Assembly (NCBI GenBank): GCA_935421135.1 | Contig: OW285187.1 | Location: forward strand, 25,358,429 to 25,422,428 | Reading direction: 5' to 3' | From: Bugulina stolonifera | Taxonomy: Eukaryota; Bryozoa; Gymnolaemata; Cheilostomatida; Bugulidae | Length of the DNA stretch: 64,000 nt | Shown here: positions 26,001-62,800 of the stretch, piece by piece | Numbering within the stretch: position 1 is the stretch's first letter | How the letters are laid out: each line of letters opens with the position of its first letter | Program-made: the position numbers and the translations under genes | The notes under the pieces: model-generated | What the model was told of the DNA's origin: nothing | Database searches by the model: none | The model's input: only the letters and a program-made list of their open reading frames with translations

Positions 26001-29000
26001 CTTTTATATTATAAAAAGTACTAATTCAAATTGTTATGATATTGCTAGGTGGCAAGTAAAATATGCCTGACAATAGATCACTGGACAGCAAGACGAAGAG
26101 GGTACCTGGGGGTGACTGGTCACTGGTATTCTAAGGAATCACGAATGAGGCATGCATGCTTGGCGCTAAGACGAATTCAAGGAAAGTGCACATACGATGC
26201 CATTGCTGAAGTCATTCATACCATTATAGCAGACTATGGGTTACACGGTAAGGTGACTCACTGTATAACTGACAGTGGGTCAAATATGATCAAAGCTTTC
26301 AAAGAGTTTTCAGTAAATCAAGAGAATGATGAGCATGACAGTGACAGTGATACTGAAACAGAAGAATTCCACATTGGTGATGCTCTCGATCAACCTCAAG
26401 CTGTGCTCCCACCACACATGAAGTGTGCTGCTCATAGGTTGAGCCTCATAGCTACAGAGGATGTGAAGGACGCTCTGGAGAATCCGATATGTAAGAAATT
26501 ATTTCGATCGATGATGGCAAAGGTACAAGCTGTTTTTAACAAGCAATCTAGATCCAGCTTGGCAAGGGATAAGATTGTGGAGATGCTGGAACGTTTGTTT
26601 GTAATACCTAACTCGACTAGATGGAACAGTTGGTACGATGCTCTGGTTCGAGTTGATCAATTCCTTAATCAGAAACCCAATGAGATGCTCAATCTCTTTC
26701 GCCACTTTGATATAAGGCCCATTCTACCTGAGGAGCATGTAGTAATAAAAGAATATTTATTTGGGATGAAGCCGGTGGCCAATGCTCTTGATGTACTTCA
26801 GGGTGAAGATGAAGTAACTGCTGGGTATCTTCTACCAACACTAAGAATTGTCCTTGAGGACCTTGAGTCCATTACAGATATGAAATATATGAGTGGACTT
26901 GTAACAGCTCTACAGGGAGCCATTCAATATCGCTTTCAAGAAGAATTGGAGTCGACATGGTTTAAGGTATCTGCAGCTATTCACCCAAGCTTTAAACTTT
27001 ATTGGGTAAAAGAAGAAGAGGCCGATTTTATATCAACTGTGGTGAAAGCAAAACTGAGGGAGATGGAGGAAGCAGAGCCTACTCAATCACCTGTGCCCAC
27101 AACCTCAGATGACACAGAGCCTCCAGCAAAAAAGTCACTCTTCTGGAGATTGGAAAAAAAGCGCATGGAGTCCACTTCATCAAAGACTGGACTTGTCTCA
27201 CTATGGGAAGACTGGGTTAAGTCAGCAGACTGCGAAGTTCCTACCAGATTGTGGCCTGTGTTTGTCAAGTTTAACACTACACTCTGCAGTTCTGCACCAG
27301 TTGAACGGTTATTTTCCCTGGGAAAACGTGTTTTGACACCAAATCGCTCCTTGTTAAGTGACGCTAACTTTGAACTGACTACAATGCTTGCCTTTGACAG
27401 TATGAAGAGAAGGTGTTTGGTACAGGGCAATGCTGGTATTATTGCTAAAGTTTGAGCTATAACTGTGAGAATGTGTTGTGTTGTACTATCATTATATTTT
27501 TATCTTTGCAATATATTATATTAATAAATACTTTGTTTAACTCATCTTGATCCATCATTTTTCTAGATACCTGGAAAATGTATTGAAAGTTGTTATACCC
27601 ATATACATGTGCATTTTCTAAAAGCGTCATCGATTGTAAAATCGATTGAAGTACAATCTTTGATTTGGTAAAGTGACAATCGAATGCTTGTATTCTTTGG
27701 TTTAACCAGCATAATCGAAAATCGAAAATCGAATGCAAAAGTAGATCAAAGTTCCCAACCCTGTCTAGTACTCCACACCTAGTTGGTTCAACAGCACACA
27801 GCTAACTATCAGCTGTACAACATTTTACCAAAACAAGTTTTCCATGTTGCTACTGCCTTCCACAAAAACCTGGTATCAGCTATTAGCTCAAAGCTTAGGC
27901 AACAATACTGCATGTATTGGGTATTTAATCTAGGCTACTTTTTTGGCATAATTCTTACACTGTAAGACATGTACGTAAAATGCATATGATTGTAGGCCTA
28001 TAGATGATGAATAATAAGACGAGACACATTTTTATATTTTTGTTGACTCGACAAAAATATAAAATACAAAAATATAAAAATGCGTGCGTCTCGTCTTGTT
28101 ATTTATCATTAAGATACTTGCTTGCACCAAAATTCTCCAATTGTATAAATATATATGTAGACCAGTTTATTAATAAATAACATTAATGGTGATAGGTTAC
28201 ACAAGTGCATTATTATACATACAAACACAGTTCATCTACATGTATCTATGTTACACTATAATAAATTATTATTCTACCAGTGACAGACTTTAGTAAGATA
28301 GTTTATATGTACATGATATGCTATACGATATGCTATAGACATGCTATATGAGTATGCTATATACATTGTAGCAACTAGAAACTAAAATAATGCTAGAAGT
28401 AATATGCAGCATATAAATAAGACTAGATGTAATATGCAGCATATACATATAAATATGGAGTTAGTCATCATTTCTGTTGTTGAATTTAAGGCAACAGAAC
28501 ACATTTCTTAGAGCTCTTCTGATACGTTTTCTTAGGCTAAGTCTCTCTGTAGTATCTACTGAGGGAGTAGTTATAACATCCCCTTCTTCAAACAGTAGAC
28601 TTAGATCTGCTGAACTTACTCCAGAATCTAATAATAATAGAATATCATGTAAAAATATCTAAATACCATAGTAATAAATGCAAATAATTCTGTTGTCTCT
28701 GTAAAACATGATTTTTGTGAATAATAATATGAAAGTGTGGGCTATATTAGACAATGTAAACTTACCAAATGTACTGATCATCTTCACTTCACTGTTGTTG
28801 AGTCTTTTATTGAGACAGGTTCATCATCTACTGAGTTAATAACACAACTAATTACTACTAATTACTAAGTAAACTATATATTATATGAATCTACAAAGCT
28901 ATACACAGAATCTTATAAACATACTTCAAGTTACGTAATTGTAAGTCCTGCTTGGTATACACTTTGCACCACCACAGATAGACATCTATATACGTAGACC

Positions 29001-32000
29001 AATAAACATACTTGTAGATAATAGGTATATAATCATCACCTTTGTTAGTAGAAGACTCGGTAATCATATTATAAGACTGGCTACTCTGGTTTATTTCCTG
29101 TACATGAACTGAGTCACTCTTAGACACGCCCACTTCTAGATTTGATAAGTCGTCCTCTGTCCTCCATGACTTTAAGATATTCTGCCCTAAGAGGTAGAAA
29201 CATAAACTATATAATTATTATGATATACAACCATTTTTAGACCACGTTAGGATAACTCCATATACTCTTTTGTATAATTCATGTAGATAGTCTACCAAAT
29301 AAACTGGCTTGCATGATGTATATGCGTATATAATTAAATACTTGCTTACCATTTTCTGCTGTGGAGTTGTCACACATTGGATTCAATTTATTTTCCTCAA
29401 AAACCTGCTCATACTCATCAAAGTCATCTAGATTACCGATATCTGACTTTATCAGATTAGTAGCAGGAACTGTAAATAGAGAGAATTATTATTGTAATGT
29501 TGATTTCCTCAGCTCTGCAGCTGGTGTGAATTGGTGTCTGGTTAGAACCCCTAACCTGAGACATCCAACACTTTCCTCAGTATAGTTGCCGTTCCTAGTA
29601 GAGCAGAAAATTGAATCCTGTCTACTTCCTTCCGCTGTATATCAATCATCCCCAGATATTCTTCTAGCTTCATTATTATCGCTCATGTTGATTTCCTCAG
29701 CTCTGCAGCCGGTGTGAGTTGGTGTCTGGTTAGAACCCCTAACCTGAGACATCCAACACTTTTCTCAGTATAGTTGCCGTTCCTAGTAGAGCAGAAAATT
29801 GAATCCTGTCTAATTCCTTCTGCTGTATATCAATCATCCCCAGATATTCTTCTAGCTTCATCACTGCTCCCAGTGCTCCTACGACAACAGGGATCACATT
29901 TACAGATGTTTCCCAAAGTCTCTGTAACTCTCTCGCCAAATCTTGATATTTCTCAACCTTTTCTCTTTCCTTCTCTTCTACTCTAGCATCCCCAGGTACT
30001 GCGATGTCAATAATCCACGTGTGGTCCATATCCTTGTCTTTCACGACGATGTCTGGTCTGCGGGCTTGTATCACATGATCAGTCTGAATGTTGAAGTCCC
30101 ACAAAATCTTTGCTTTGTCATTTTCTGTCACTTTTCCTGTATTATGTTCATACCAGTTCTTAGCATGCGGAAGTTCATATCTCCTGCACAGATTCCAATG
30201 CACTAATTGTGCGACCTTGTCATGTCTCTTTTTATAATCTGTTTGAGCCATCTTAGAACACTCGCTTAGAATGTGAAAAACTGTTTCATTTCTTTCATTA
30301 CACATTCTGCACAGAGGTGTTCCAGATTGCTTTTCTATATTCACTTTTCTCCATCGTGTTGGTAATGCCTGGTCTTGTGCTGCTGTGATCAGTCCTTCGG
30401 TCTCTTTTTTCATATATCCATTTTTCATCCACTTATATGTCTTCTTTCTGTCTGTCTTGTCTGCTATTTTTGTATACTGTCCGTGTAGTGCCTTCTCTTT
30501 CCATTCCTTCTCGCTGGTTTCTCTTTGACTGTCCTGGTATTCTCTTTTCGTTTTCTCCTTCATCAATTTCTTCAAAAATCTATTATATCCTTTCTCTTCG
30601 CACCTGATGTAATCCGACAGTCCATGTTCCTCTGTCCTCACTGTTTCTTCTGCTGATCTTAGTCCTCTTCCACCCTCATTCCTCGGTAGGTACAGTCTAG
30701 CCACATTAGCTCTTGGATGCAACGCTCTATTGATAGTCATAAGTTTCCGTGTCTTCCTGTCTATGCCTTTTAAGTCATCCTGCGTCCAATCTAGTATCCC
30801 CCCAGAGTATCTGAGCACAGCAACTGCCCCTGTGTTGATTGCCTTGATAACATTTCCTCCATTCAGTTTAGATTCCAATAGCAGTTTTACTCTTCTTATG
30901 TACTCACTTCTCATTTTGTCTTTCATTTCCTTGGTCTTTATTTCACTAGCCTCTAGTACTCCTAGGTATTTGTAGCCTTCACCTCCTAGGTCTTTCATCA
31001 TTTCTCCATCAGGTAACAGTATACCCTCATCCACCTCTCTCTTTCCTCTCTTCAAAACTATGCTGGCACACTTCTGAATTCCAAACCTCATCCTTACATC
31101 TTGTGTGAATATTCTCACTGTCTGAACCAAAGACTCCAATTGGCTTTTGTTACCCCCATATAACTTCAGATCGTCCATGTAAAGCAGATGGTTCACCTTC
31201 CCAGATACTGATCTGTTTAGGCAATAACCCTGCTTTACCTCCCGTAGCATCACACTCAATGGAATCAGACAAATGATAAACAGCAAGGGTGACAATGAGT
31301 CTCCTTGAAATATTCCTCTTTTGATATCCACCTTAGCCAGCTGTTGCCCGCCACATTCCAAATTCGTGGTCCACTCCTTCATACTTCTACAAAGAAATTT
31401 TCTGGTTCCCTCTGCCACTCCTACCATCTCAAGTGTCTCAGATATCCATGAATGTGGTACTAAATCGTACGCTTTTTGGTAGTCTATCCACCCCATTGCA
31501 AGTCCTGTTTTCCGCTGTTTACAATCCCTCATAATCACTTTATCAAGCATCAGATGATCTTTCGTTCCACGGTATCCTTTTCTGCATCCCTTTTGTTCTT
31601 CTCCCAGAAGATCTTTCTCCTCAAGATATCTGTAGATTTCCTCGGATAGCATTGAGGTGAGGATCTTCCAAACAATCGGTAGGCAGGTTATAGGTCTATA
31701 GTTTCCTGGTGCTCGTCCTTTGTTTACATCCTTTTGTATCAATACAGTTCTTCCAGTTGTCATCCATACAGGAATGTGTGCATTCTCCAGGCACTCATTC
31801 AGGTGTTCTACAAGTTTGCTGTGAAGGTTGGTCAGGTTTTTGATCCAAAATCCTTGCACGGCATCTGGTCCCGGAGCTTTCCAGTTTGGTAGTTTCACAA
31901 GCGCCTTTTTCAACATGTCTGCGCTAATCTCCACATCCTGCTGTTTATCGGGTCTTTGTAGCTTCTCCCTCACTCTGGTTATCCATGGCGCATCCTCATC

Positions 32001-34313
32001 ATGTTCAGCAGCTTGTCCCCAGATGTCTTTCCAGAATGCTTTAATAATTATTAAAGCATTAATAATAATGCTTAATAATGCTTATTATTATTATTATTAT
32101 TATTCATGTTGATTTCCTCAGCTCTGCAGCCGGTGTGAGTTGGTGTCTGGTTAGAACCCCTAACCTGAGACATCCAACACTTTTCTCAGTATAGTTGCCG
32201 TTCCTAGTAGAGCAGAAAATTGAATCCTGTCTACTTCCTTCCGCTGTATATCAATCATCCCCAGATATTCTTCTAGCTTCATCACTGCTCCCAGTGCTCC
32301 TACGACAACAGGGATCACATTTACAGATGTTTCCCAAAGTCTCTGTAGCTCTCTCGCCAAATCTTGATATTTCTCAATCTTTTCTCTTTCCTTCTCTTCT
32401 ACTCTAGCATCCCCAGGTACTGCGATGTCAATAATCCACGTGTGGTCCATATCCTTGTCTTTCACGACGATGTCTGGTCTACGGGCTTGTATCACATGAT
32501 CAGTCTGAATGTTGAAGTCCCACAAAATCTTTGCTTTGTCATTTTCTGTCACTTTTTCTGTATTATGTTCATACCAGTTCTTAGCATGCGGAAGTTCATA
32601 TCTCCTGCACAGATTCCAATGCACTAATTGTGCGACCTTGTCATGTCTCTTTTTATAATCTGTTTGAGCCATCTTAGAACACTCGCTTAGAATGTGAAAA
32701 ACTGTTTCATTTCTTTCATTACACATTCTGCACAGAGGTGTTCCAGATTGCTTTTCTATATTCACTTTTCTCCATCGTGTTGGTAATGCCTGGTCTTGTG
32801 CTGCTGTGATCAGTCCTTCGGTCTCTTTTTTCATATATCCATTTTTCATCCACTTATATGTCTTCTTTCTGTCTGTCTTGTCTGCTATTTTTGTATACTG
32901 TCCGTGTAGTGCCTTCTCTTTCCATTCCTTCTCGCTGGTTTCTCTTTGACTGTCCTGGTATTCTCTTTTCGTTTTCTCCTTCATCAATTTCTTCAAAAAT
33001 CTATTATATCCTTTCTCTTCACACCTGATGTAATCCGACAGTCCATGTTCCTCTGTCCTCACTGTTTCTTCTGCTGATCTTAGTCCTCTTCCACCCTCAT
33101 TCCTCGGTAGGTACAGTCTAGCCACATTAGCTCTTGGATGCAACGCTCTATTGATAGTCATAAGTTTCCGTGTCTTCCTGTCTATGCCTTTTAAGTCATC
33201 CTGCGTCCAATCTAGTATCCCCCCAGAGTATCTGAGCACAGCAACTGCCCATGTGTTGATTGCCCTGATAACATTTCCTCCATTCAGTTTAGATTCCAAT
33301 AGCAGTTTTACTCTTCTTATGTACTCACTTCTCATTTTGTCTTTCATCTCCTTGGTCTTTATTTCACTAGCCTCTAGTACTCCTAGGTATTTGTAGCCTT
33401 CACCTCCTAGGTCTTTCATCATTTCTCTATCAGGTAACAGTATACCCTCATCCACCTCTCTCTTTCCTCTCTTCAAAACTATGCTGGCACACTTCTGAAT
33501 TCCAAACCTCATCCTTACATCTTGTGTGAATATTCTCACTGTCTGAACCAAAGACTCCAATTGGCTTTTGTTACCCCCATATAACTTCAGATCGTCCATG
33601 TAAAGCAGATGGTTCACCTTCCCAGATACTGATCTGTTTAGGCAATAACCCTGCTTTACCTCCCGTAGCATCACACTCAATGGAATCAGACAAATGATAA
33701 ACAGCAAGGGTGACAATGAGTCTCCTTGAAATATTCCTCTTTTGATATCCACCTTAGCCAGCTGTTGCCCGCCACATTCCAAATTCGTGGTCCATTCCTT
33801 CATACTTCTACAAAGAAATTTTCTGGTTCTCTCTGCCACTCCTACCATCTCAAGTGTCTCAGATATCCATGAATGTGGTACTAAATCGTACGCTTTTTGG
33901 TAGTCTATCCACCCCATTGCAAGTCCTGTTTTCCGCTGTTTACAATCCCTCATAATCACTTTATCAAGCATCAGATGATCTTTCGTTCCACGGTATCCTT
34001 TTCTGCATCCCTTTTGTTCTTCTCCCAGAAGATCTTTCTCCTCAAGATATCTGTAGATTTCCTCGGATAGCATTGAGGTGAGGATCTTCCAAACAATCGG
34101 TAGGCAGGTTATAGGTCTATAGTTTCCTGGTGCTCGTCCTTTGTTCACATCCTTTTGTATCAATACAGTTCTTCCGGTTGTCATCCATACAGGAATGTGT
34201 GCATTCTCCAGGCACTCATTCAGGTGTTCTACAAGTTTGCTGTGAAGGTTGGTCAGGTTTTTGATCCAAAATCCTTGCACAGCATCTGGTCCCGGAGCTT
34301 TCCAGTTTGGTAG

Positions 34314-34357
<44 letters not shown>

Positions 34358-37300
34358 GTACTACTAATGGCAATTCCGAAGGGCCTTGGGTTCCCAGTAC
34401 TGAGTTAAGAGTTCCCAAGAGAAAGCAATTTCAGCGGTACTGGGAATTGAATCTTTCAGGGAAAGCCTGAAGTATCTTACCGGCCCAGCACTAATGTACA
34501 GTGTATATTATCAATAGATATTCCTACATAAATACATAGATATAGTGTGTATATCTCACCATTTGTATATATTCAACTCCATCAGGGACTATAGTCTTAT
34601 CATTTTCACTATCCAACTCCTTATTCCACTCTGTATATAATATTATTATGTTACAATGTATAACATGTCTAATAGTTTGGAGTTATGTTCTCTTATCAGG
34701 TAATAATAGTTGTTAGAGAAGTTGTCTCCTCTTACAATTCAATGCCAATTTCACAATGTTATTGTCTATCCTACATATACATGTAGTATTTGAGTAACTC
34801 AGTAATATGAATAGCCTGTGCACGATTGTATATCAAAGAAAATGTTCTTTAGTATGATTATTGTACTAACCAACAAGAGCAGTAAACTCCACTCCATCAG
34901 GTACGATAGTCTTAGAATCATCTAAATTATCACTACTAGTACCAATATCCTTCATCAACTTACATCTGAAATAAATAAAAATACAATGAATATTATTCTA
35001 CTTTCATAATAATCTTAATATACAGTATAGTATAGCGTTTACTGCGTTTATCGCAAGTTTTAACCGACAGTCCTAGTGAAATGCTCTACTGTAACATCAC
35101 ATAAATTATTAAATCCAAATATATTTATTATATAGTATTCTAGTTTTTGTATAGTCTACAAAGCATATGTATGTAAATGTACATGTATAGGTGCTATATG
35201 TACACAGTGTACCCCAGTGTATATATAGGGCCCAAATAATTATTAGCATAGCACTTTGACTTAGTTTTATCATTATGTAACTCGTTGAGTGAACCACAAC
35301 GAGTGTTCTGAAAACTGACTTCTCTATTTAGTTCAGTTGTAATCAACTAATAAACATACTAAACACTACTTGTATCACATGTACATTATACATACACATA
35401 GTAGACATAATATGTAAATATATAAAATTATTTAGCAGCAAAATTAAGTTTGTGAGTAGAGAACAGAGGAAGGGAAACCTACGATATGAGAGACTAAATA
35501 TCACATGCTTAGACTTACATTATATAGTCGATACACGACTCAGACACCATATTCTGCTCCATACACGACATTCTATATATGAGATAGTATATAGATAATA
35601 TCATAGAAAAACAAATCACTTTATCGTATGTTTAATAGTCCGAGAGAGAGAGAGAGTTAATATATATTCTGGTATACTCATCACAATCTGAACTAACAAT
35701 GGTCTGAGATGAGTTATACTGTTTACTTTGTGTCATAAGTTGATTGTTGAAAGTTATGTATTAATTTATAATAAAATACAATAATGATTATGTTATTCTG
35801 TTGGAAAGTTATCTTCCCTTCTACTTGTAATACAACCCGATAACTAAATAACGATTATATATTTTATGGGATTACAATAATTGTAGTAATAATTATGTAT
35901 AATATTGAATGATTAGATTATGAACGAGCTATTGGCAGTTCAACATTTTCTATGGTCATAATGTAAGTTATTGTACAAATGAAAAGTCAAAAGTACCAGT
36001 TTATACATTCCCCACAATTTGAAAGCAAGCCTAGTCTTCATTTACATTTATTTGTCATGTTTGACTTTGTTGTATGTTTACTAACTGCTAGTCCCATAAT
36101 ACAAAGGTTTCTAAACAATATTATTCTCAACGATAATTAGCACTATGTTACTGTATCCCCTGCACCACTGTAAGCCACTCCACCACTGTACACCTTACAC
36201 TACTGTACACGCTATACCGCTGTATCCACTCCACCACTGTATCCACTGTACCACTGTATCCACTCCACCACTGTACACCTTACACTACTGTACACGCTAT
36301 ACCACTGTATCCACTCCACCACTGTATCCACTGTACCACTGTATCCACTCCACCACTGTATCCACTATACCACTGTATCTACTCCACCACTGTATCCACT
36401 ATACCACTGTATTCACTATACCACTGTATCCACTCCACCACTGTATCTACTACACCACAGTCTCCACTACACCACTGTACCCACTATACCACTGTATCTA
36501 CTCCACCACTGTATCCACTATACCACTATATCCACTACACCACTGTATCCACTATACCCTGTATCCACTATACCACTGTATCCACTCTACCACTGTATCT
36601 ACTCCACCACTGTATCCACTACACCACAGTCTCCACTACACTACTGTACACGCTATACCACTGTATCCACCACACCACAGTCTCCACTATACCACTGTAT
36701 CCACTACACCACTGTATCCACTATACCACTGTATCCACTACACGACTGTAGTAACCATGATGTTCCTGCTGCAGATGCTGGTGGCCCAGGGTGCTGTACC
36801 TTTTATTAGGACTAACATTCCACAAACCTGCTTGGCATTTGATAGTACTAACCCCATATATGGGGCAACCTCCAACCCACATAACTCCAGCAGATCTTGT
36901 GGGGGTTCCTCTGGTGGTAAGCTTGATTCACTCCTTACTTTACCTTAGTGTGCTGTGTAAACTCTGTATATCAACTCTTTCCTCTCCATGGAATTCCCTC
37001 TTGGCCCAGAGTTATTAATTTCCGGTAAGTGGGTCATAGGCCTATGCTCATTGTTGTTCAAATTTTCTAAACTACATTTTATTGATGTAACAATTATAAT
37101 TATGGTGCATATACTGTACATCTGATCTGCTCTCAACTTATGCATTTCTTATACTAATACATTTCCTGTTTACATGTACAATGTAGGTGAAGGAGCAGCT
37201 ATAGCTACAGGAAGCTCTATACTCGGCTTTGGCAATGATATCGGTGGTAGTGTTAGGATTCCAGCAGCCTTTTGTGGTATTTACTCTTTGAAACCGACAG

Positions 37301-45277: not shown

Positions 45278-46074
45278 TGTAATGGTTTTTGGTTTCTGGT
45301 ATGGTCGTCCTAAGACGACTCCCGAGTCCAAAGTGAAGTGCTTATGAGTGGTGCTAGGCCTTCTCATTACATGAAAGATTGATCGGTGTCAGTAGTCAAA
45401 GACCTACCAAAGACGACCCATATGATCCCGAGTCAATGCTTGTTTACTATACTGAGAAAGAGAGTGATCCGACCTAGTAGGCAGTTCGTGCTGCAAGGTC
45501 GAGGACCTTAACAACTAGAATGACCTATCTACAAAGTGAAAGTCTCTGTATATAAGTATAGATGTGTCTTTATTGAGATCCAAGCATGAACTGAGACAAC
45601 AAACGTAAAAACAATGCCCTTTATATAGTAAGAGAACTTCCGGAGGAAGTTCCGGTAAAAAGGCCGACGTAGTGTCGGGAAAAGACAACGTAGGGTTGTC
45701 TGGAAATTGCGCAACAACATGACGGCCATAAGCCCGATGGCCGACCTAAAATGGGTCGGGTTAATACAAAAGATGCTTAGAATCATTCAAATCGTATACA
45801 AAATGAATATCAGGTAATTCTGAGAGGTCGGGCCTCTTTACATGGGTATAAAAACAGTACAATGTCCCAGTAATGCTATATACAGGTATGTACATGTAAT
45901 TATCGAATGTATGGTTAGACATGCAATATAAAACAAGTATGAGTATAGGAACAGCTAAGTGCAAGAGAATAAGTGTTAGATGAGTAGTGCTGTGGCAACT
46001 ACTAGGCACTTAGAGTGCTACAAGGTCCATCAGGGTGGCTGGAGTCGTATATACAAATGTCCTGAACCACTACA
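45278..46074 (-). mobile_element. Solo LTR, family 1, copy 2
   Basis: TG...CA ends (TGTAATGG, CCACTACA) and an exact 4-bp duplication GTAT (45274-45277, 46075-46078). In minus orientation it has a TATA box and an AATAAA. Homologous to 8950-9735 and 54338-55129. Confidence 0.8.
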
Positions 46075-48987: not shown

Positions 48988-51900
48988 ATGGATGTTGAAG
49001 AGGAGATTGCTAGTCTAGAAGTAGTTGGTACTATAATTATTCTAGCTGGTGTTGGTATTAAACAGATCTATTCTTGGACCAAATCATGCATAGCAACAAG
49101 GCGTTACAATCGTGTCAGAGAAAACAAGCAAGCTACTGTACAAACGGCTAAGGAGCATTGGATGACACAAGTAAAAGCACAGGTAACTTATGATTCAGTA
49201 TAGTGGCATTGGCCAGATTGAGCATGCTCCAACTCCATTAGTACTGATCACTCTTTGGTTATATAGTTCACGATACTACATGTGCCGCTACAGAGCCAAC
49301 TTTGTCATAGCAGTCTGTATCATAACCTGAATTAATTCAAGTTTAAATTGTCATCTGCTCCATGATGATGTTTTATCTTTCTTTCTTGGAACCCAGTTTG
49401 TGGTATTTTGTGTAGATTCAGCCAGAAGATGCCAATAGAATTGTTAGCTTGTCCTTTGAGAATTTACGAAAGGCTTTACATTCCGGTGAGGTGACAGCTA
49501 CACAGGCACTGCATGCATACCAGTACAAAGTGGTTCAAGAAAATACTAAATCTAACTTTCTATGTGAGGCTGTTGTAGAGGCAGAGGTAGGTCACAGAGT
49601 TGAAGTTGTGCTTCCTGTCCTGCTGTACCAGTGAATGCGGACATATATATTTTTAGCTTCAATTTTATTTTTTAACACGATTAAATCTTTAATGCAGGAC
49701 ATGGCTGCAAAGCTGGATGCTTTATCTGCAAAGGAACGTCAAAAGCTGCCTCTCTTTGGTATACCAATCAGCTTGAAGGAGATTTATATGCTTGAGGTAT
49801 GAAGGGGTACACGATGAGGTGTATTATAAGAGTTCTGTAATATTAATCGCTATCAGCTTGAGCTAGAAATGAAACTAATTTTTTGTCTCAAAGAACGTCT
49901 TACAGCTGAATTGAAGTTGTGTTCTCATGGAATAACTAGTTTGTTTACTTTTAGGGTTATGATTGTACAGTAGGATGTGTGAGACTAGTAGATAAACCGA
50001 TGAAAGAGACATCATCCATAGTAAAGGTAAACTGTTACCATATACATATAGATAGTTATACTATGTGTAATTACTCAATCCTATTACTTCCCAGCTGTAT
50101 GATATTGTGATGGATTGGTCGACTCACCCAACACCCAGGTCATCAAGAAGGCCTCGTCGCCCAAGCGAATATTCTCCATCTTGAGTAACTCTAAGCATGC
50201 CCTTATGTCTAGATTATTTGTGAAATAAGCATATTATGATCTGATTACATTCTATGTCTTTTTGCCTATTGTAATTGATGGCCGATGTCTTGGATATTTA
50301 TCATATTAATACATAATCCATTTCTCATCTTTGTAAGCACTTTTGCGCATGGCCGACCTTTTTATGGTCGGACCTCGGGCATTTTTCAGCTATCTTGCTA
50401 CCCATTTTCCTGGGACGATGCCTTATCGTGCAGCCCGACCCCCTGTCGGCCTTTTTGCCGAAAGTTTGAATCATATAGAAGCCAGTATAATATTTTCTAT
50501 GCTAAATCAGTTGTTGATTGCGCTCTAATAAAGCAACATCTTCTAACTCAACCTACAGAGTCTTACTCTTGCAGCTCCAGCCTTGGTCCTTGAACCTTTA
50601 GCGCCCGAGCTCGTCCTCATACTCGTATAAGTCTCTTACTACACTCCTTGATGAGTATAAGCCTCTGACCTTAGTCAATCCTTGATTCTTCAATGAATCT
50701 AACATCGGGCCTACATCCCCTCTTCAACATAGATACTCTCTACACTCCTACGAAGTCTAAACCATCGAACCTACGTCAAACCTTGACTCTTTAATGAGTC
50801 CAAACATCGGCCTATGTCCTCCACAATAACTACAAGAGCTTTCTGTAATGTTTTGTGCTATGGTTTTCCCACGGGTGCCGATGTTAGCACGAGTGGGGGA
50901 AGCGCTTGGTAGTGGTAGTGGGCTGCCAAGGTAAACTTCCACACATTACATGAAGAGTGAACAATTAAGTAAAGCTCTTGTAGTTATTATAGAGGACGTA
51001 GGCCGATGCTTAGACTCATTAAAGAGTGTAGAAAAAATGTTTATATTGATGAGGGGACATAGACCCAAGCTAGATTAATTGAAAAATCAAGGATCGGCTA
51101 AGGTCCGATGGTTTATACTCAGCAAGGAGTGTAGTAAGAGACTTATACGAGTATGAGGACGAGCTCGGGCACTAAAGGTCCAGGGGACCAAGGCTGGAGC
51201 TGCCTGCCTGCAAGAGTAAGACTCTGCAGGTTGAGTTAGGAGATGACGTTGCTTTATTGAAGTGCAATCAACATAGTGATTTAGCATTGGAAATGTGCTG
51301 GCTTTTATGTAAAATGAACTTCTTGCTAACAGGGCTGACAGGGGGTCGGGCTGTACGATAAGGTATCGTCCCCGGAAATTGGGTAGCAAGATAGCTGAAA
51401 AATGCCCGAGGTCCGACCATAAAAAGGTTGGCCATGCACAAAAAGTGCTTAGAATAGTGAGAAACGGATGCTATCTTAATATGAGACATATCCATGACAT
51501 CGGCCATCAATTACAATAGGCAAGAAGACTTAGAACATAATCAGGTAATAATATACTTGTTTTACAGGTAATCTAGACATGAAAGCATGCTTAGAGTCAT
51601 GCACTCAAGACAGAGAATATTTGCTTGGGTGACGGGGCCTTCTTGATGACTTCTGCATAGGTCGGCCAGGGTGTTGGATGAGTCGGCCAATCCATCACAT
51701 TACTTAATTGTTCACTCTTTATGCAATGTGTGGAAGTTTACCTTGGCAGCCCACAACCACTACCAAGCGCTTCCCACACTCGTGCTAACATCGGCACTCG
51801 TGTGAAATCCTAAGCACAAAACATTACAATATTATGTGAAGTTGTCCTCCCTTTTTCCTTTTTCTTTTCCAAACTGAGGTGGGCGTAGTGATATTCTACA

Positions 51901-54900
51901 ACTATTTTTGTTATGCACAAATTTCTGCGGAGTTGTTTTTCCCTGATAGCAACTTTTGAACTTATCTACTGAATTCATCATGCCCATTTAAAAGTTATTT
52001 GATATCATGTAGATAGAAAAGATATTGATAGAAAGCAATTACATTATTATAATCAGTGATATTGGTATGACTGATAGTAGTCTAGTACTCCACACCTAGT
52101 TGGTTCAACAGCACACAACTAACGAATCAGCTGTACAACATTTTACCAAAACAAGTTTTCCATGCTGCTACTGCCTTCCACAAAAACCTGGCATCAGCTA
52201 TTAGCTCAAAGCTTAGGCAACAATGCTGCATGTATTGGGTATTTAATCTAGGCTACCTTTTTGGCATAATTCTTACACTGTAAGACATGTACGTAAAATG
52301 CATATCAATGTATACATTTACATGCATATGTATAAGTGTATATGTAGGCCAGTTTATTAATAAATAACACTAATGGTAATAGATTACACAAGTACATTAT
52401 TATAGTACAAACACAGTTCATCTACATGTATCTATGTTACACTATAATATTATTCTACCAGTGACAGACTTTAGTAAGGTAGTTCATATATGTACATGAT
52501 ATGCTATATACATTGTATCAACTAGAAACTAAAATAATGCTAGAAGTAATATGCAGCATATTAAATATGACTAGATGTAATATGCAGCATATAAATAAGA
52601 CTAGATGTAATAGGCAGCACATAAAATGACTAGATGTAATATGCAGCACATAAATAAGTAGATTAGATGTAATATGCAGCACATAAATAAGACTAGATGT
52701 AATATGCAGCACATAAATAAGACTAGATGTAATATGCAGCATATACATATAAATATGGAGTTAGTCATCATTTCTGTTGTTGGATCTAAGACAACAGAAC
52801 ACATTTCTTAGAGCTTTTCTGATACGGTTTCTTAGGCCAAGTCTTCCTGGAGTATCTACTGAGGGCGTAGTTATAACGTCCCCTTCTTCAAACAGTAGAC
52901 TCAGATCTGCTGAACTTACTCCAGGATCTAATAATAATACATATAAATATACTACAAGGTACTACTGATGCACCCATAGCAGTTGACCGCAGTAGTTATG
53001 ATATCGTTGTAATATCATCACATAGACGCCATGTATGCATGTGTGTATTTATGCAGTGACTTCCTAAAGATATATTATTTCTTAATACAGTAAGAATGAA
53101 ATGGAATGGATTTAAGTAAAATGCTTCAGCTCAATTTAACGTATTGCTAATTTATTGAATCTCTATAATATGTTGCACATCGTACAGTATAACACATCTA
53201 TACATTGTATGTTAGAATTAATTATTGATAATATCAAACTATGAAGTACGTACTATATTAGACAATATTAACTTACCAAATGTACTGATCACCTCCGTAT
53301 TCAGATTTTCACTGCAACTCAGAGTTGAGTCTTTTATTGAGACAGGTTCATTATCTACCGTTAATAACAAAACTAATTACTACTAATTACTAAGTAAACT
53401 ATATATTATATGAATCTACAAAGCTATACACAGAATCTTATAAACATACTTCAAGTAATTGTAAGTCCTGCTTGGTATACACTTTGCACTACCACAGATA
53501 GACATCTATATACGTAGCCCAATAAACATACTTGTAGACATGTATATGATCATCACCTTTGTTAGTAGAAGACTCTGTAATCATATCAGAAGACTGGCTA
53601 CTCTGGTTTATTTCCTGTACATGAACTGAGTCACTCTTAGACACGCCCACTTCTAGCTCTGATAAGTCGTCCTCTGTCCTCCATGACTTTAAGATATTCT
53701 GCCCTAAGAGGTAGAAACATCAACTATATAAATATTATGACATACAACCATTTTTAGACCATGTTAGGATAACTCCATGTACTCTTTTGTGTAATTCATG
53801 CAGATAGTCTACCAAATAAACTTTCCTGCATGATGTATATGTATATATAATTAAACACTTGCTTACCATTTTCTGCTGTGGAGTTGTTACACATTGGATT
53901 CAATTGATTTTCCTCAAAAACCTCCTCATACTCATCAAAGTCATCTAGGTTACCGATATCTGACTTTATCAGATCAGTAGTAGGACCTGTAAATAGTGAG
54001 ATTCATTATTATTGGTTGTTCAGACAATTCCGAAGGGCCTTGGGTTCCCAGTACTGAGTCAAGAGTTCCCAAGAGAAAGCAATTCCAGCAGTACTGGGAA
54101 TTGAATCTTTCAGGGAAAGCCTGAAGTATCTTACCGGCCGAGCACTAATGTACAGTGTACATTATCAATAGATATTCCTACATACATACTTGTACATGTA
54201 AATATAGTGTGTATATCTCACCATTTACTTGTATATATTCAACTCCATCAGGGACTACAGTCTTATCATCTTCAATATCCAATTCCTTATTCCACTCTGT
54301 ATCTGTTAATATATCATATCATTACGTTACAATGTATTGTAATGGTTCAGGACATTTGTATAGACGACTCCAGCCACTCTGATGGACCTTATAGCACCCT
54401 AAGTGCCTAGTAGTTGTCACGGCACTACTCATTTAACACTTATTCTCATGCACTTAGTTGCTCGTGTACTCATACTTGTCTTGTATTGCATGTCTAACCC
54501 TACATTGATAATTACATACCTGTATATTATAGTTTTATTAAGACATTATACTGTTTTTATACCCATGTAAAGAGGCCCGACCTCTCAGAATTACTTGATA
54601 TTCATTTTGCATATGAATTGGATGATTCTAAGCATCTTTTGTAATAACCCGACCCAATTTGGGTCGGCCATCGGGCTTCCGGCCGCCATGTTGTTGCGCA
54701 ATTTCCGGACGACCCTACGTCGTCTTTTCCCGACACTACGTCGGCCTTTTTACCGGAACTTCCTCCGGAAGTTCTATTACTATATAAAGGGCATTGTTTT
54801 TATGCTTGTTGTCTCAGTTCATGATTGGATCTCAATAAAGACACATTTATACTTATATACCGAGACTTTCACTTCGTAGATAGGTCATTCTAGTTGTAAG

Positions 54901-57900
54901 GTCCTCGACCTTGCAACACGAACTGCCTACTAGGTCGGATCACTCTCTTTCTCAGTATAGCAAACAAGCATTGACTCGGGATCATATGGGTCGTCTTTGG
55001 TAGTTCTTGGCTTACTGACACCGATCAATCTTCCATGTAATTAGAAGGCCTAGCACTACTCATAGGCACTTCATTTTGGACTCGGGAGTCGTCTCAGGAC
55101 GACCACACCAAAACCCAAAAACCATTACAATACTAACCAACAAGAGCAGTAAACTCCACTCCATCAGGTGCGATAGTCTTAGAATCATCTAAATTATCAC
55201 TACTAGTACCAATATCCTTCATCAACTTACATCTGAAATAAAGAAAACTACAATGAATATTATTCTACTTTCAGTATAGTATCACATTGTATGTTGTTTT
55301 ATTACTGGTTTTTAATTAACAGTCCTAGTGAAATGTTGTACTGTAACATCACATAAATTATTAAATCAAAATGTATTTATTATATTATAGTATTCTAGTT
55401 TTTGTGTAGTCTACAAAGTATATGTATGTAAGTCTACATGTATAGGTGCTATATGTACACAGTGTACCCCAGTGTATATATAGGGCCCAAATAATTATTA
55501 GCATAGCACTTTGACTTAGTATTATCATTATGTAACTCGTTGAGTGAACCACAACGAGTGTTCTGAAAACTGATTTCTCTATTTCGTTCAGTTGTAATCA
55601 ATTAATAAACATACTAAACACTACTTGTATCTACATGTACATATACATACACAGTCATAGTAGACATAATATATATATAAACATGTAAAATTATTTAGCA
55701 GCAAAGCTACGTTTGTGAGTAGAGAACACAGGAAGGGAAACCTATGATTATGAGAGACTAAATATCACATGTTTAGACTTACATTATATACTCGATACAT
55801 GACTCAGACACCATATTCTGCTCCATACACGACATGCTATATATGAGATAGTATATAGATAATATCGTATAAATACAAGTCACTTTATCGTATGTTTAGT
55901 AGTCCAAGAGAGAGTGAGAGAGTTAATATATATTCTGGTATACTCGCCACAATCTGAACTAACAATGGTCTGAGATGAGTTATACTATTTACTTTATGTC
56001 ATAAGTTGATTGTTGAAAGTTATGTATTCATTTATAATAAAATACAATAATGATTATATTATGTTGTAGAGTTATCTTCCCTTCTTCTACTTATAATACA
56101 TGTACAACCAGATAACTTAATAACGATTATGTGTTTTGTAGGATTACAATAATTATAATAATAATTACATGTACATATAATATTGAATGATTAGATTATG
56201 AATGGGTTATTGACAGTTCAACATTTTCTATGGCCATAATGTAAGTTTTTGTACAAATGAAAAGCCTAAAGTACCAGTTTATACATTCCCCACAATTTGA
56301 AAGCAAGCCTAGTCTGCATTTACATGTTACATATTTACTAACTGCTAGTTCCATAATACAAAGGTTTCTAAACAATAATATATTCTCAACAATAACTAGC
56401 ACTATGTTACTGTATCCACTGCACCACTGTAAACCACTACACCACTGTATCCACTGCACCACTGTAAACCACTATACCATTGCATCCATTGCACCACTGT
56501 AAACCACTATACCACTGTAAACCACTGCACCACTGTAAAACACTATACCACTGTATCCACTGCACTACTGTAAACCACTACACTACTGTATTCACTGCAC
56601 CACTGTAAACCACTACACCACTGTATCCACTGCACCACTGTAAACCACTACACCACTGTATCCACTGCACCACTGTATCCACTACACCACTATAAACCAC
56701 TGCCCCACTGTATCCACTGCACCACTGTAAACTGCTACACCACTGTATCCACTGCACCACTTTATCCACTGCGCTACTGTAAACCGCTATACCACTGTAT
56801 CCACTGCACCACTGTGCACACTATACCACTGTATCCACTACACCACTGTAGTAACCATGATGTTCCTGCTGCAGATGCTGGTGGCCCAGGGTGCTGTACC
56901 ATTCATTAGGACTAACATACCACAAACCTGTTTGGCATTTGATAGTACTAACCCCATATATGGTGCAACCTCCAACCCACATAACTCCAGCAGATCTTGT
57001 GGGGGTTCCTCTGGTGGTAAGCTTGATCCACTCCTTATTTTACCTTGCTGTGTTGTGTGTACTCTGTATATGCAGTATAGTCTATATACAATGTACTCCT
57101 TACTTTACCTTACTGTGCTGTGTAAACTCTGTATATCAACTTTTTCCTCTCCATGGAATTCCCTCTTGGCCCAGAGTTATTAATTTCCGGTAAGTGTGTC
57201 ATAAGCCTGTGCTCATTGTCGTTCAAATTTTCTAAACTACATTTTATTTATGTATGATTATAATTATGGTGCATATACTGTACATCTGATCTGCTCTCAA
57301 CTTATGCATTTATTATACTAATACATTTCCTGTTTACATAAACAATGTAGGTGAAGGAGCAGCTATAGCTGCAGGAAGCTCTATACTCGGCTTTGGCAGT
57401 GATATCGGTGGTAGTGTGAGGATTCCAGCAGCATTTTGTGGTATTTACTCTTTGAAACCGACAGCTGGTAGACTCAGTTTCCATGGCGACACAGGTGTAG
57501 ACTTGAATGAGAGGATCGGTTAGTAAATGTTTATATTATACATTTCTATAGATCACAACTAGTATTTGTATTTGTATAATATAGTTATATATTGTTATAA
57601 CTAAAATTGGGGGTTTTGGTATTGTCAGTTATAACATTTAATTGGAGCCAAAGTACTTAGGACTCACCAGCTGTACGTAGTATTGTAATGTTTTTGAGTG
57701 TGATTACATACAGGAGCCGATAGGCTGCAAGTATGGGAAGGGCTTGGAAGGTGGTAGAGGCCGACCAAGTAACCTTCTGCTCATTACATAAAGAGTGACC
57801 AGTATTTATATGCTCTTATTGGTGTGTATATCAGACGTAGGCCGATGCCGAGACTCATTGAAGAGCTCAGGACCGACGTAGGTCTTGTAGACTTTATACT

Positions 57901-59773
57901 CCAGAGGAGTGCAGTGAAAGATCTGGTGTTCTAAGACCTTGGGCTCGACGCTAGATTCATGTAAAATCCGGGATCGACCCAAGTCGTAGAAGTGGTGAAG
58001 AGATGTGCTTAAACGAGGATGGGGATGAACTCGAGCTGTACTGGATCTATGGATCCTCCGGTAGAGTTACCCGCCTACAAGAATAAGCCTCTATAGGTTT
58101 GAGTTAGGAGATGTTGCTTTATTGAAGCGCAATCAACAACTGATTTGATACAGAAAATGTACTGCCTTTTATACTACATGTATATCTATTTCCGGCCAAA
58201 AGAGGCCGATAGGGTATCGGGTCCGGAACTGATGCAACAACATGGATGGTTCCGCCCGACGTCGGCCATAAAAAGGGTCGGCCTTGGCACAAAAAGTGCT
58301 TACAATAAGGTGAAACATAAGATATATAATTATGAGTCCAATCCATAGCATCGGCCACAAGTGATACTTACATGTATAATAAATGGTAAAAGACTCTATT
58401 TAATATGGTCAGACAAGAGAAGGTAATTGCTAACAGTGTATGGGAAAAACCAAGTTGTAATAAAGTTGTAATTCCAATAGTCTGATTGACAAGTAATAGT
58501 AAAGGCACACAATATAAGTTGATTGGATATAAGTGATGCATAACAATAATAGTATAAGGTAAGACATCGTGCATGAATGAATATGGATACATGGATAATA
58601 GTGTAATGCATGATAACGTCAATGTTAATGTTAATGTCAGTGTTGTGTGGTTGGCCCAGGGAGGCCATTGCCACGGAGGCTGTTTCACCACAGTATGTAG
58701 TAGTAGTACACTGTCTGTAGGTCCTTTTGTTAGCGCCTTGATCTCCAATGTAGTAAGCTGTGTAGGGTAGGTTCTGGCTCTGTGGTCTAGGATGTGACGG
58801 TGTCGACTCTATTCTGAGGTCTACAACGAGATAGTTGTTCCGCATATATCCTTGCTCCTTAGTACGCATTGATATGAGTTACTGGGTAGCATACGATCCA
58901 CCTACACTATACACACTGTTGTAGTTTAGTTTTTAGTGTTTTTGTTTTAGTGTTTTATTAGTTTTTATTTGGTTTTCTATTTTGTAGCTTTTCTTTCATT
59001 TTCGTGTTTTCCACTAGCCTATACATTTGTATAATATATATATGTAACGTCTATGTCATCGTCCACTCTTGTCACTGTGTGACTTATCTACAGGTATGTC
59101 TACAGTCTATACTGCTGTCTCTCCATGCCTCATTTTCACAGTCTACTCTAGGTATCTGTCTATCTATCTCTCTACTGAGACTACTCTACAGTGTAGGTAC
59201 TCCTCTCCTATATATGCCTGTCCTATCTAAGTATCTACAGTCAGCCAATCAATTTTAGTGAGGAGTTATATTCTCTCAAGTGCGCAAGAGTGGACAACTC
59301 TTAAATATACTAATTGTCACTATTTACATGCAACAATATTATGTATATTCACATACACGTATGCATACATGCAAGTACATGCGTGCACATATATAGTATA
59401 TACTACTCAAGCTCACTATGTATACCTTATACAGCATGATGTCTATGTCATCTACTCTGTTATAGTGACGGTAACATGTGGACCAATGGGAAGAGATGTA
59501 GACTCACTGATAGCTGCCATGAAAACTCTGTCTATGCGAGAATCTCTCCTAGTAGATCCATACGTACCTCCAGTAGCATTCAATGATGAGGTGGGAGCTA
59601 GTGATAGTAGCAGTAGTGGTAGCGGTAGTGGCAACAGCAGCGACAGTGGCAGCAGCAGCGGCAGCGGCGGCAGCAGCAGTCGCAGCAGCAGCAACAGCAG
59701 TAGCAGCAGTAGCAGTAGCAGCAGTAGCAGCAGTAGCAGCAGTAACAGCAGTAGCAGCAGTAGCAGCAGTAGC

Positions 59774-59823
<50 letters not shown>

Positions 59824-62800
59824 CAGTAATAGTAGCAGGAGTGATAGTAGTAGTGATAGTAGTTGTGGTAATGGTTAATGATAATAGTACAATTAATAGT
59901 AGTGAGAGTGGTAGTAGTTGTAGGAGTGGTGGTGGTAATAGTAGTGGCAACACTGTTAGTAAAAGTACTAGTAGCCGTGGTATAGTGATATTAATAACCG
60001 TAGTGATAGTAACATCGGTGGTACTCACTTGAACTAACATTGTCAACACATGCATCGTCTTCGTTCAATTCTGATTGTAAATCTAATTAGTCAGCGGCTA
60101 GCTACTGCAGAGAAACAATTTTTATTTACTGTAAATTTGCTGGCAGGAACTGAATTCCACACGAAAACTTCGCATCGGCTGGTTCGATCACATGGATCCC
60201 ATGGAGACGAGTGAGTCATCCAGAAGGGCTGTTGCTATGGTAGTGCTGGCCCTGAAGGAAGCTGGTCATGAGGTAGGTTCAACCTACTCTATCAATAGGT
60301 GTACTATGTATAACTTTACTATTACATGTACTCATTGACTATCAACTTATACCAAATGTTTCTAATTTCCAGAATGATTAGTTCACCATCTTGCCTTTCA
60401 GCATGCTATTTACATTCTTGTCAAATGCCAAGCGGCTAACTACAGGCTTTTCAATTCTGGATTAATATTGGGAAAGGTAGCTTTATAGGCATTGGACTTA
60501 AACTTTCAAAACCTATGTTTGTGAAAAAGTGTAGCCTATTTTTTATGCTGGTGCACTTTAATTTCACATCTATATCAATAAATGGTAAACAATTAATAAA
60601 GAGTCATGGACAAAGCACTTAAATCATATTTGTTATCATTATTGGTTATTTTCTACAATCTGTTTGTAAGGTGGTGGAGTGGCAGCCCCCCAACACTGTT
60701 TGGGCTCTATCTGAGGCATTTAGTACCAATGTGTTTGGAGATGGTGGAAAAACATTCCTTGAATCAGTGTTAGTATCTCTTAAATTATATTTAATTCTAC
60801 TATTATTGTTGGTATAGGTTGTGAGCCTATTAATACTGTGGTGAATCAGCATAACCTGCCACATCATGAACTGCAACTTGTGCCAATAATCTTGTACATG
60901 CATTGACATTGTTCTTATATCTAATCTTATACATGCGTGGAGATAATTATTATAATCAATTGCTTTATGCATAGTGTGCTTTGTATTGTTATCATTAGCC
61001 AATCAGGTTATCGCTTTTCCTATATGGTTTAACTATACTATGTGTGCATTTATCTATTTATCCTGATTATATCTTCCAAGTCTTTTACCTGTACACTTTT
61101 TGGGGCCGATGTCTCAAAACATGGCCATATTTATATATAATCCATACTGGTATATTGTAAGCACTTTTTGTGCAAGGCCGACCCTTTTGGTGGCCGACGT
61201 CGGGCGGAACTACACCATGCTGTTGCATAAGTTCCGGCCCGATACCTTATCGTACCAGCCCGATACCTTATCGTACCAGCCCGATACCTTATCATACCTT
61301 TTTCCGGAGTGTTATTAGTATAAAAGCCAGCACATTTCTTGTATCAAATCAGTTGTTGATTGCGCTCTAATAAAGCAACATCTCCTAACTCAACCTAGAG
61401 TCTTACTCTTGCAGGCAGGTAGCTCCACCCACAGGTTTTCTTAGACCTAAGCGGCCGAGCTCATCCTCATACTCGTTTAAGCACACTCTTTCTACGCTCC
61501 TTGTGAATTCTACATTATCGGACTTTAGCCGATCCCGGATTCTTCATGAATCTAGCGTCGGGTCTAAGCCCTTAGATCAATACTACTTTTTCTACACTCC
61601 TTTGGAGTATAAACCTACAGACCCACGTCGACCCTGGACTCTTCCATAAGTCTCAGCCTTGGCCTACGTCTTTATCAACAATCATAGAGCTTAACTAACT
61701 GTTCACTCTTTATGTAATGTGTGGAAGTTACCTTGGTTGTCCTCTACCAACAAACAGGCACTTCTCGTACCCGTGCCATATCGGCACTCGTACGTAGCCC
61801 TACACAGCAAAACATTACAATACAAACCACTGAAATATCATTTTCCAGATGAGCATTCAGTTTAAATCAACCAACCAACCAACCAATCAATCTTGTTATG
61901 CAACATTTGTAGTCAAAATGATATCTGGGAGGATCATATAAAGGATACAGCCCACTTAGCAATGATTCCTGTGTGGCTAAAGAAGCTATTGTTGTACACT
62001 GTTGCCCGATTAATTGTAAGATTTCTCATACTCATGATTTAAGTAGATTTTAGGTGCTATAATTTATATAAAAATCTTTGTTGTGTGTGCTGGCTATATA
62101 TTATATAATCCTATTGAGTAATTATATGTAACGAAGTATTGTATGGCTTGTTTCTAGTTCCCAAAATACCTGATCAACTACCTACGAGGTAGCTGTGGTT
62201 CAGGGTCAGTTGCTCAGTTCTGGAGAGATGAGGCAGATATTAAGGTAATCTAATGGTCACTCCTGGGAAGTTTTTTTGCACTAAGCCCACTCATGGTATC
62301 GCACACTAGAACACATGATCCACTCATTGTACTACATCTGTGAAAGCTGTGTCAAACATGTCATTTTTGGTTCATTGGGCTGTCTCATATTCAAGCAGTT
62401 AGTACTATAAAGCTCACACGTGCCGTGAGTAGCATTTAAAACCTCGATGCTGAATGGCAACAACCGACCTTCTGAAGAGCACCATATCTATTCATCTGTC
62501 AGTTTTCATCCTAAGCTAATATGATATAATTTAGTCGTTAAAATTTTATCTGTTAGAGCAGGATGTGCTATGGCTTTCATCACTTTATATTCACTGATTT
62601 TGGTTTAAAGCGTTGATCTGACTCTGGAATTTCCACTAACTATTTGTATGAGTGCAACCTCTTATGGAATTTATTAGCGCAAGTTTTAAATTGGTTTGAA
62701 TGAACAACAAACATGTTGTTGATTATCTCAGAAGAGCCCAGTTCTGCGGTCAATGTTTCATAGCTACAGTTGTATTATTATATAGTACAATGTATGTGTG

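What the first reader, a model, noticed from the sequence alone, without database searches (positions are those of the whole stretch)
52761..55835. Unknown seven-exon gene lies antisense inside a FAAH intron
The minus strand of FAAH-B intron 4 holds seven phase-matched exons with standard splice sites giving 244 aa. It has an acidic middle, a duplicated TIVPDGVE motif and a basic CC-containing tail. I recognise no family. It is duplicated with its host, so antisense transcription through FAAH pre-mRNA may couple the two genes.
Basis: partly seen in the sequence, partly recalled or inferred. Interest (0 to 1): 0.8.

Follow-up and report, generated by a model that had tools for sequence, protein, structure and literature searches.

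The report
Orphan gene nested in FAAH intron
In a bryozoan (not a sponge), a small seven-exon gene of unknown family sits backwards inside an intron of a fat-metabolism gene; it appears to be a real gene, but an ordinary nested one that also exists inside a different host gene nearby, so a special link to its host is not supported.

Summary
Seven minus-strand exons at 55835-52761 join in frame with GT-AG introns, giving 246 aa (not 244), inside one FAAH intron. The genome holds four copies within 80 kb. A is broken; B, C and D are intact (246, 248, 272 aa; 18 of 18 introns GT-AG). Exons carry 1-2 indels per intact pair against 26-32 in introns. The 240 bp before the ATG is the most conserved part (2-4%; introns 11-16%). 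A, B and C share one FAAH intron; D lies antisense in an acyl-CoA oxidase intron. Coupling to FAAH is therefore not supported. No family was found. Protein constraint is weak (omega 0.63, p = 0.04; FAAH 0.17-0.25). Best reading: a self-contained, lineage-restricted nested gene for an acidic, disordered protein with a basic Cys-Cys tail, perhaps a membrane-tethered phosphotyrosine adaptor (speculative). C1 has exactly the published length of the longest scaffold of Bugulina stolonifera, a bryozoan. No RNA was available; RNA-seq ERR10123683 would decide.

The parts
55783..55835 (-). nested gene copy B, exon 1 (ATG at 55835; [17 protein letters not shown])
   Evidence: aligned in 4 of 4 copies
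55138..55232 (-). nested gene copy B, exon 2 (first PDGVE motif)
   Evidence: GT-AG introns
54222..54302 (-). nested gene copy B, exon 3 (second PDGVE motif, VEYIQV)
53867..53986 (-). nested gene copy B, exon 4 (acidic; DEYEEVF)
53557..53703 (-). nested gene copy B, exon 5
53277..53354 (-). nested gene copy B, exon 6 (one 36-nt unit; copy D has three)
52761..52927 (-). nested gene copy B, exon 7 with stop (basic amphipathic CC tail)
   Evidence: low-confidence model of the exon alone with a helix at its residues 26-51, mean pLDDT 65.9, 84 in the best block of ten
55836..56075 (-). conserved 5' flank (putative promoter and 5' UTR; TATATAT at -97)
   Evidence: 2.1-4.2% divergence among intact copies against 8.8-9.2% to broken copy A; TATA-like sites
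52353..52358 (-). candidate poly(A) signal AATAAA, 403 nt after the stop
   Evidence: AATAAA also in the 800 nt after the stop of A, C and D, at 290, 774 and 335
54335..55132 (-). about 800-bp interspersed repeat inside intron 2 of copy B only
   Evidence: 39 other places at 90-93%, which scored only 40 of 3807 candidates; intron 2 is 835 bp in B against 234, 252 and 241 in A, C and D
50027..56874 (+). host FAAH-B intron that holds the nested gene (donor GTAAAC, acceptor GCAG)
   Evidence: letters; acceptor placed so that the exon starts [10 protein letters not shown], as MLVTQGAVPF in the Bugula neritina protein P0001
49955..50026 (+). FAAH-B exon upstream of the host intron
   Evidence: start approximate
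56875..57018 (+). FAAH-B exon downstream of the host intron ([14 protein letters not shown]...)
   Evidence: end approximate
28461..35571 (-). nested copy A inside FAAH-A: broken (exon 3 acceptor lost, 4-nt deletion at the end of exon 3, 16-nt deletion in exon 6)

Best explanation
Shown by sequence: a conventional spliced gene with an open frame, nested antisense in a FAAH intron, present as three intact copies (B, C, D) and one broken copy (A). Inferred: it is protein-coding and expressed, a self-contained transcription unit with its own promoter in the roughly 250 bp before the ATG. It entered the FAAH intron in an ancestor of the chromosome-1 FAAH cluster and was multiplied when FAAH was tandemly duplicated. 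It was also copied as DNA, introns included, between FAAH and an acyl-CoA oxidase (ACOX) intron about 32 kb beyond copy C. Nesting is a place to live, not a regulatory circuit. Molecular role (about 0.25 on its own): an intrinsically disordered, acidic adaptor held at a membrane by a basic amphipathic helix with two palmitoylatable cysteines. Its three conserved Tyr sites, each preceded by Glu (IEYIIC, VEYIQV, DEYEEVF), would be tyrosine-kinase substrates and SH2 ligands.
For: GT-AG in 18 of 18 introns of B, C and D. No stop in the 246, 248 and 272 codons of the three copies; neutral chance of no stop in 101 substitutions 0.023. Exon indels 1-2 per intact pair against 26-32 in introns, the exon ones of 6 and 72 nt in frame. 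Exon divergence is below intron divergence in 6 of 6 pairs, p < 0.05 in 5 of 6 (well-aligned columns only, intron 3 left out for the three pairs with A). The 5' flank is at 2.1-4.2% among B, C and D against 8.8-9.2% to broken A (flank against introns p 4.7e-10, 4.6e-6 and 7e-4; B-C flank against B-A flank p 0.0019). Homology of D to the others begins 248-255 bp before the ATG and ends 196-271 bp after the stop. D sits in an ACOX intron of about 4.4 kb; the neighbouring ACOX paralogue has about 0.5 kb there. FAAH paralogues elsewhere have short introns there; no nested gene in 8 of 8 fetched loci. For the role: net charge -29 to -35, last 40 residues +4, best 18-mer moments 0.69-0.73, Tyr contexts kept in 3 of 3 intact copies; helix in a low-confidence model of exon 7.
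Against: No transcript was seen. Codon-level constraint is weak: omega 0.63, p = 0.04 over the whole protein, and none of the four subsets significant (exon 7 omega 0.81, p 0.74). A simple simulation gives p = 0.017. FAAH on the same duplicates has 0.17-0.25. Exon against intron divergence is not significant for C-D (p 0.25). Gene conversion between copies (A and C differ by 0.7% in intron 6) can lower divergence, including in the flank. No homologue in the collections searched, which include annotated Bugula neritina proteins. No transmembrane-like segment. The palmitoylation, ITIM and SH2 readings rest on short motifs recalled from general knowledge.
Confidence: 0.72

Rival explanations
1. 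Antisense coupling: transcription of the nested gene through FAAH pre-mRNA regulates FAAH, and the arrangement is kept for that reason.
For: Antisense in 3 of 3 chromosome-1 FAAH copies; D is antisense to its host too; antisense regulation and transcriptional interference are known phenomena (listing).
Against: An intact copy lies outside FAAH; one nested copy is broken; FAAH paralogues elsewhere lack it in the stretches fetched; opposite-strand nesting is the usual outcome (220 of 296 human and 193 of 248 mouse pairs, PMC8467205 section 3.2).
Confidence: 0.1
2. A gene on its way out: it was coding when it inserted, but is now under little or no constraint, with B, C and D simply not yet broken.
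For: Copy A is already broken; omega 0.63 with p 0.04, no subset significant.
Against: Few indels in exons, 18 of 18 introns with intact splice sites, and the 5' flank conserved in intact copies but not in A.
Confidence: 0.12
3. Cargo or gene of a transposable element that hops between introns.
For: Sits in two different hosts; C, D and the A/B pair share nearly the same upstream boundary of homology.
Against: The four copies lie within 80 kb of one chromosome. Flank and gene DNA of D gave, outside the four copies, 1 hit of 94 bp and 6 short hits of about 45-107 bp. No transposase or polymerase domain.
Confidence: 0.04
4. Conserved non-coding element (enhancer or structured RNA) whose open frame is accidental.
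For: The 5' flank is more conserved than the exons.
Against: In-frame 36-nt repeat expansion in D, exon indels between intact copies multiples of 3, intact splice sites.
Confidence: 0.03

Closest known systems
Opposite-strand nested (intronic) protein-coding genes of animals, e.g. 2mit in a timeless2 intron of Drosophila (PMC3786989, start of abstract in the listing); human and mouse sets in PMC8467205 (sections 3.1 and 3.2)
   Same: Wholly inside one intron, opposite strand, own exons; the usual origin is insertion of a duplicated gene
   Different: Orphan protein; one copy sits in a second, unrelated host gene
LRRTM genes nested antisense in alpha-catenin introns (PMC3933685, abstract seen)
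   Same: A nested gene moved into a large intron and was then multiplied with its host by duplication
   Different: LRRTMs are a known vertebrate family; here the family is unknown and was found only in one 80-kb cluster of this genome
Palmitoylated phosphotyrosine adaptors such as LAT, PAG/Cbp, LIME (recalled)
   Same: Acidic, disordered, Tyr in acidic contexts, cysteines that could be palmitoylated
   Different: No transmembrane-like segment, cysteines at the C-terminus, no sequence relation found
GPCR helix 8 (basic amphipathic helix with palmitoylated Cys; recalled)
   Same: Look of the tail [16 protein letters not shown]
   Different: No seven-helix domain; none of the 10 PDB sequences hit by the tail at E <= 10 is a GPCR

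Membership tests
Nested (intronic) gene | whole gene lies within one intron of a host gene | tested here: met
   Host FAAH exons on both sides for A, B and C; ACOX exons on both sides for D
Nested (intronic) gene | own open reading frame and splice sites | tested here: met
   B, C and D intact, 18 of 18 introns GT-AG; A not intact
Nested (intronic) gene | independently transcribed | not testable with these tools
   No RNA data; a conserved 5' flank is indirect support only
FAAH (host; amidase signature enzymes) | amidase domain and close match to solved FAAH | tested here: met
   PF01425 E 3e-53; 1mt5 FAAH E 4.5e-44; both on a 237-aa part
Acyl-CoA oxidase (host of copy D) | ACOX domain match | tested here: met
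   Acyl-CoA_ox_N E 1.4e-21 on three joined exon pieces of the minus-strand gene; a further exon found by tblastn
LAT/PAG-type transmembrane adaptor | transmembrane segment | tested here: not met
   best 19-residue Kyte-Doolittle mean 0.81, 0.85 and 0.71 in B, C and D; no dedicated predictor was run
LAT/PAG-type transmembrane adaptor | several Tyr motifs phosphorylated and bound by SH2 proteins | not testable with these tools
   3 conserved E-Y motifs; phosphorylation unknown
Transposable element gene | dispersed copies or element termini | tested here: not met
   4 copies, within 80 kb; termini were only looked at by eye in the alignments
Any Pfam, NCBIfam or PHROG family | score above cut-off | tested here: not met
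   Pfam none at E up to 10; NCBIfam best 14.5 bits, E 0.011, against a cut-off of 1020; PHROGs best E 0.11

The most novel reading that the evidence does not exclude
A bugulid-restricted orphan family encodes a non-transmembrane, C-terminally lipidated phosphotyrosine adaptor, and spreads as a complete promoter-plus-gene cassette that settles antisense in introns of unrelated (here lipid-catabolic) host genes.
Probability: 0.12. Interest if true: 0.55.

Novelty: new member of a known kind. Interest (0 to 1): 0.35.

Why it matters
It is a clean small case of gene nesting with internal controls: three intact copies, one broken copy, two different hosts, and related host introns without the gene. 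It separates what belongs to the gene (exons, splice sites, about 250 bp upstream) from what belongs to the host, and suggests that a shared duplication history with a host need not mean shared regulation. The protein family is undescribed in the libraries searched, and nested genes can be lost by automatic annotation (PMC10282587, passages). It also corrects the source organism, so the right RNA-seq and relatives can be used.

Tried and rejected
Family searches found nothing usable: Pfam, NCBIfam, PHROGs, PDB (best E 0.0063 to an alpha-isopropylmalate synthase chain, judged chance; tail alone 59, best E 0.55), 5.8 billion proteins with the single sequence (12) and with B, C and D aligned (55). 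As a positive control a joined FAAH-B chain did find bryozoan and other animal proteins (484 at E <= 1e-60 among 7998 scored candidates, 120 listed), so animals are in that database; an unannotated nested gene would still be missed there.

Rejected: the codon test. Its null fixed kappa at 2 because the estimate was not read, so its p-values (down to 1.5e-5) overstate selection; one search replaces it (p = 0.04). A 94-bp match (82%) to the upstream flank at C1:22922422 was checked as a possible further gene copy; tblastn found no nested-gene exon in that 10-kb stretch. Peptide queries f8 and f9 were uncertain or wrong-frame guesses and were left out, which used 9 of the 11 FAAH pieces. My A exon 3 end was one base off: read from the letters the deletion there is 4 nt, while one search counted 3; the 'TG' shown for A's third intron comes from that. 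A rows were not used for the selection statistics quoted.

Direction of the move between FAAH and ACOX was not settled: informative sites favour AB with CD in introns 1 and 5 but AC with BD in intron 6, a mosaic as from gene conversion. The exon 7 model (mean pLDDT 65.9, two rows) was too weak for a fold search. Literature searches gave no paper on this gene (listings); some searches were partly aimed at sponges before the organism was known.
Full report
WHAT IS THERE. On the minus strand at 55835-52761 seven exons join into 741 nt without an internal stop and encode 246 aa. All six introns are GT-AG; the first is phase 2 and the other five are phase 1. The gene lies between two FAAH exons of the plus strand, one ending at 50026 and one starting at about 56875, with a GTAAAC donor and a GCAG acceptor (letters; the acceptor is placed by the MLVTQGAVPF of the Bugula neritina protein P0001). 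The host is FAAH: Pfam Amidase E 3e-53 and solved fatty-acid amide hydrolases as the best PDB matches.

ORGANISM. The window is G000:C1:25358429-25422428. C1 is 36,811,656 bases. This is exactly the longest scaffold of Bugulina stolonifera tzBugStol2.1 (PMC10213821, section read), a cheilostome bryozoan. C3 (26.37 Mb), C7 (19.49), C8 (16.40) and C9 (16.36) agree as well. The totals differ slightly: 234.95 Mb in 27 contigs held here against 234.98 Mb in 30 scaffolds. The best protein match of the joined FAAH-B chain is FAAH of Bugula neritina, same family Bugulidae (66% over 59%). The sponge attribution is wrong.

COPIES. A protein search of the whole genome found four places, all within 80 kb of chromosome 1; beyond them only two weak hits at E 1.2 and 5.0. 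A: 35571-28461, in FAAH-A. B: the finding. C: window coordinate 72053-69420, in FAAH-C. D: 103747-106286, on the plus strand. B, C and D are open and give 246, 248 and 272 aa; 18 of 18 of their introns are GT-AG. D's exon 6 is 72 nt longer: it holds three in-frame units of 36 nt where B has one (read). A is broken in three ways: no AG before exon 3, 4 nt lost at the end of exon 3, and 16 nt lost in exon 6 with a stop after it. Since exons 3-6 are all phase 1-1, skipping exons 3 and 6 would keep a frame; whether that happens is unknown.

TWO HOSTS. A, B and C lie in the same FAAH intron (about 12.7, 6.9 and 4.5 kb). D has no FAAH exon near it. It lies antisense in an intron of a minus-strand acyl-CoA oxidase gene, between an exon ending at 107062 and one starting near 102639, about 4.4 kb (splice sites read by eye). 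The neighbouring plus-strand ACOX paralogue has about 0.5 kb at the same place. In FAAH paralogues on other chromosomes the corresponding intron is short: about 290-625 bp in L047, L050 and L051, where both flanking exons were placed; in L048 and L049 the neighbouring exons lie within 0.5 kb. tblastn found no nested-gene exon in the eight 10-kb loci fetched. So the gene looks like an insertion in both hosts. Homology of D to the others starts 248-255 bp before the ATG and ends 196-271 bp after the stop. I did not settle which host came first; the informative sites are a mosaic.

CONSTRAINT. Exons differ less than introns in 6 of 6 pairs of copies (for example B-C 0.081 against 0.158), significantly in 5 of 6 (C-D p 0.25). 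That count used well-aligned columns only and left out intron 3 for the three pairs with A. Among intact copies the exons have 1, 2 and 1 indels against 32, 30 and 26 in introns of similar scored length. The neutral chance that 101 substitutions make no stop is 0.023. Against this, amino-acid constraint is weak: NG86 ratios are 0.41-0.70 for the three intact pairs, one-ratio maximum likelihood 0.63 with p = 0.04, and none of the four subsets significant (exon 7: 0.81). A simulation gave p = 0.017. Nine FAAH exon pieces of A, B and C have 0.17-0.25, at similar synonymous distance (B-C 0.122; nested gene B-C 0.113). The earlier codon test was wrongly set up and is not used. The 240 bp before the ATG is the most conserved part: 2.1, 3.3 and 4.2% between intact copies, but 8.8-9.2% to A. 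A's flank has thus drifted like its introns (B-A, p 0.59), while B, C and D have not (p 4.7e-10, 4.6e-6, 7e-4). This is what a promoter kept only in working copies would give; gene conversion among B, C and D is the alternative. A TATATAT at -95 to -97 is in all four.

PROTEIN. No family was found. The protein is acidic (net -29 to -35), falls on the disordered side of the charge-hydropathy line, and ends in a basic amphipathic stretch with Cys-Cys (best 18-mer hydrophobic moments 0.69-0.73). Exon 7 alone is modelled, with low confidence (mean pLDDT 65.9), as a helix over its residues 26-51. There is no transmembrane-like segment by hydropathy. Three tyrosines are shared by 3 of 3 intact copies, each after Glu: IEYIIC, VEYIQV, DEYEEVF. 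In D each of the three exon 6 units has a Tyr (YSE), where B and C have Cys and Asn. From recalled motif knowledge VEYIQV fits an ITIM pattern and DEYEEV resembles a Src-family SH2 ligand, and CC in a basic tail suggests palmitoylation. Hence the proposed role as a membrane-tethered phosphotyrosine adaptor, at about 0.25; such motifs are short and may be chance.

MECHANISM. Shown: gene anatomy, copies, hosts, conservation. Inferred: expression, own promoter, DNA-level copying with introns, autonomy from the host. Not shown: any transcript or protein. Host coupling is not excluded, but I found nothing that supports it: D is intact without FAAH, and A decays with FAAH present.

KNOWN CONTEXT. 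Nested genes are common in animals. Opposite-strand pairs are 220 of 296 in human and 193 of 248 in mouse, and most nested genes arise by insertion of duplicated genes (PMC8467205, sections 3.1 and 3.2 read). The sponge Aphrocallistes has 12.4% nested genes, and some annotation settings miss them (PMC10282587, passages). LRRTM genes in alpha-catenin introns are a precedent for a nested gene multiplied with its host (PMC3933685, abstract). I found no paper on this gene in the searches (listings only).

VERDICT. A real and probably functional orphan gene in an ordinary kind of arrangement, with a good natural experiment attached; interest moderate.

Noticed in passing
window:29672-34316: Copy A's intron 3 is swollen to about 5.1 kb by a 2.2-kb direct repeat (29672-31895 and 32093-34316, 99% identical), with a 190-bp piece present three times.
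   Followed up: no
window:54335-55132 and 45274-46077: An interspersed repeat of about 800 bp: 39 other places at 90-93% identity among the 40 of 3807 candidates scored; one copy sits inside the nested gene's intron 2 in copy B only.
   Followed up: partly
L046:4923-5016 (G000:C1:22922422-22922515): 94 bp, 82% identical to the conserved upstream region of the nested gene, 2.5 Mb away with no nested-gene exon in the 10 kb fetched; perhaps a shared promoter element or an old fragment.
   Followed up: partly
window:28628-28765 (copy A, intron 6) and copy C intron 6: A and C are 0.7% divergent in intron 6 although 10% over the scored introns together, as from recent gene conversion.
   Followed up: partly
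window:56409-56880: A minisatellite (cagtggtgcagtggata-like units) lies between the nested gene's upstream flank and the next FAAH exon in A and B.
   Followed up: no
window:19565-41609, 48543-64000 and beyond to 78668: Three tandem FAAH genes; FAAH-A has N where B and C have S in GFG(S)DIGGS.
   Followed up: partly
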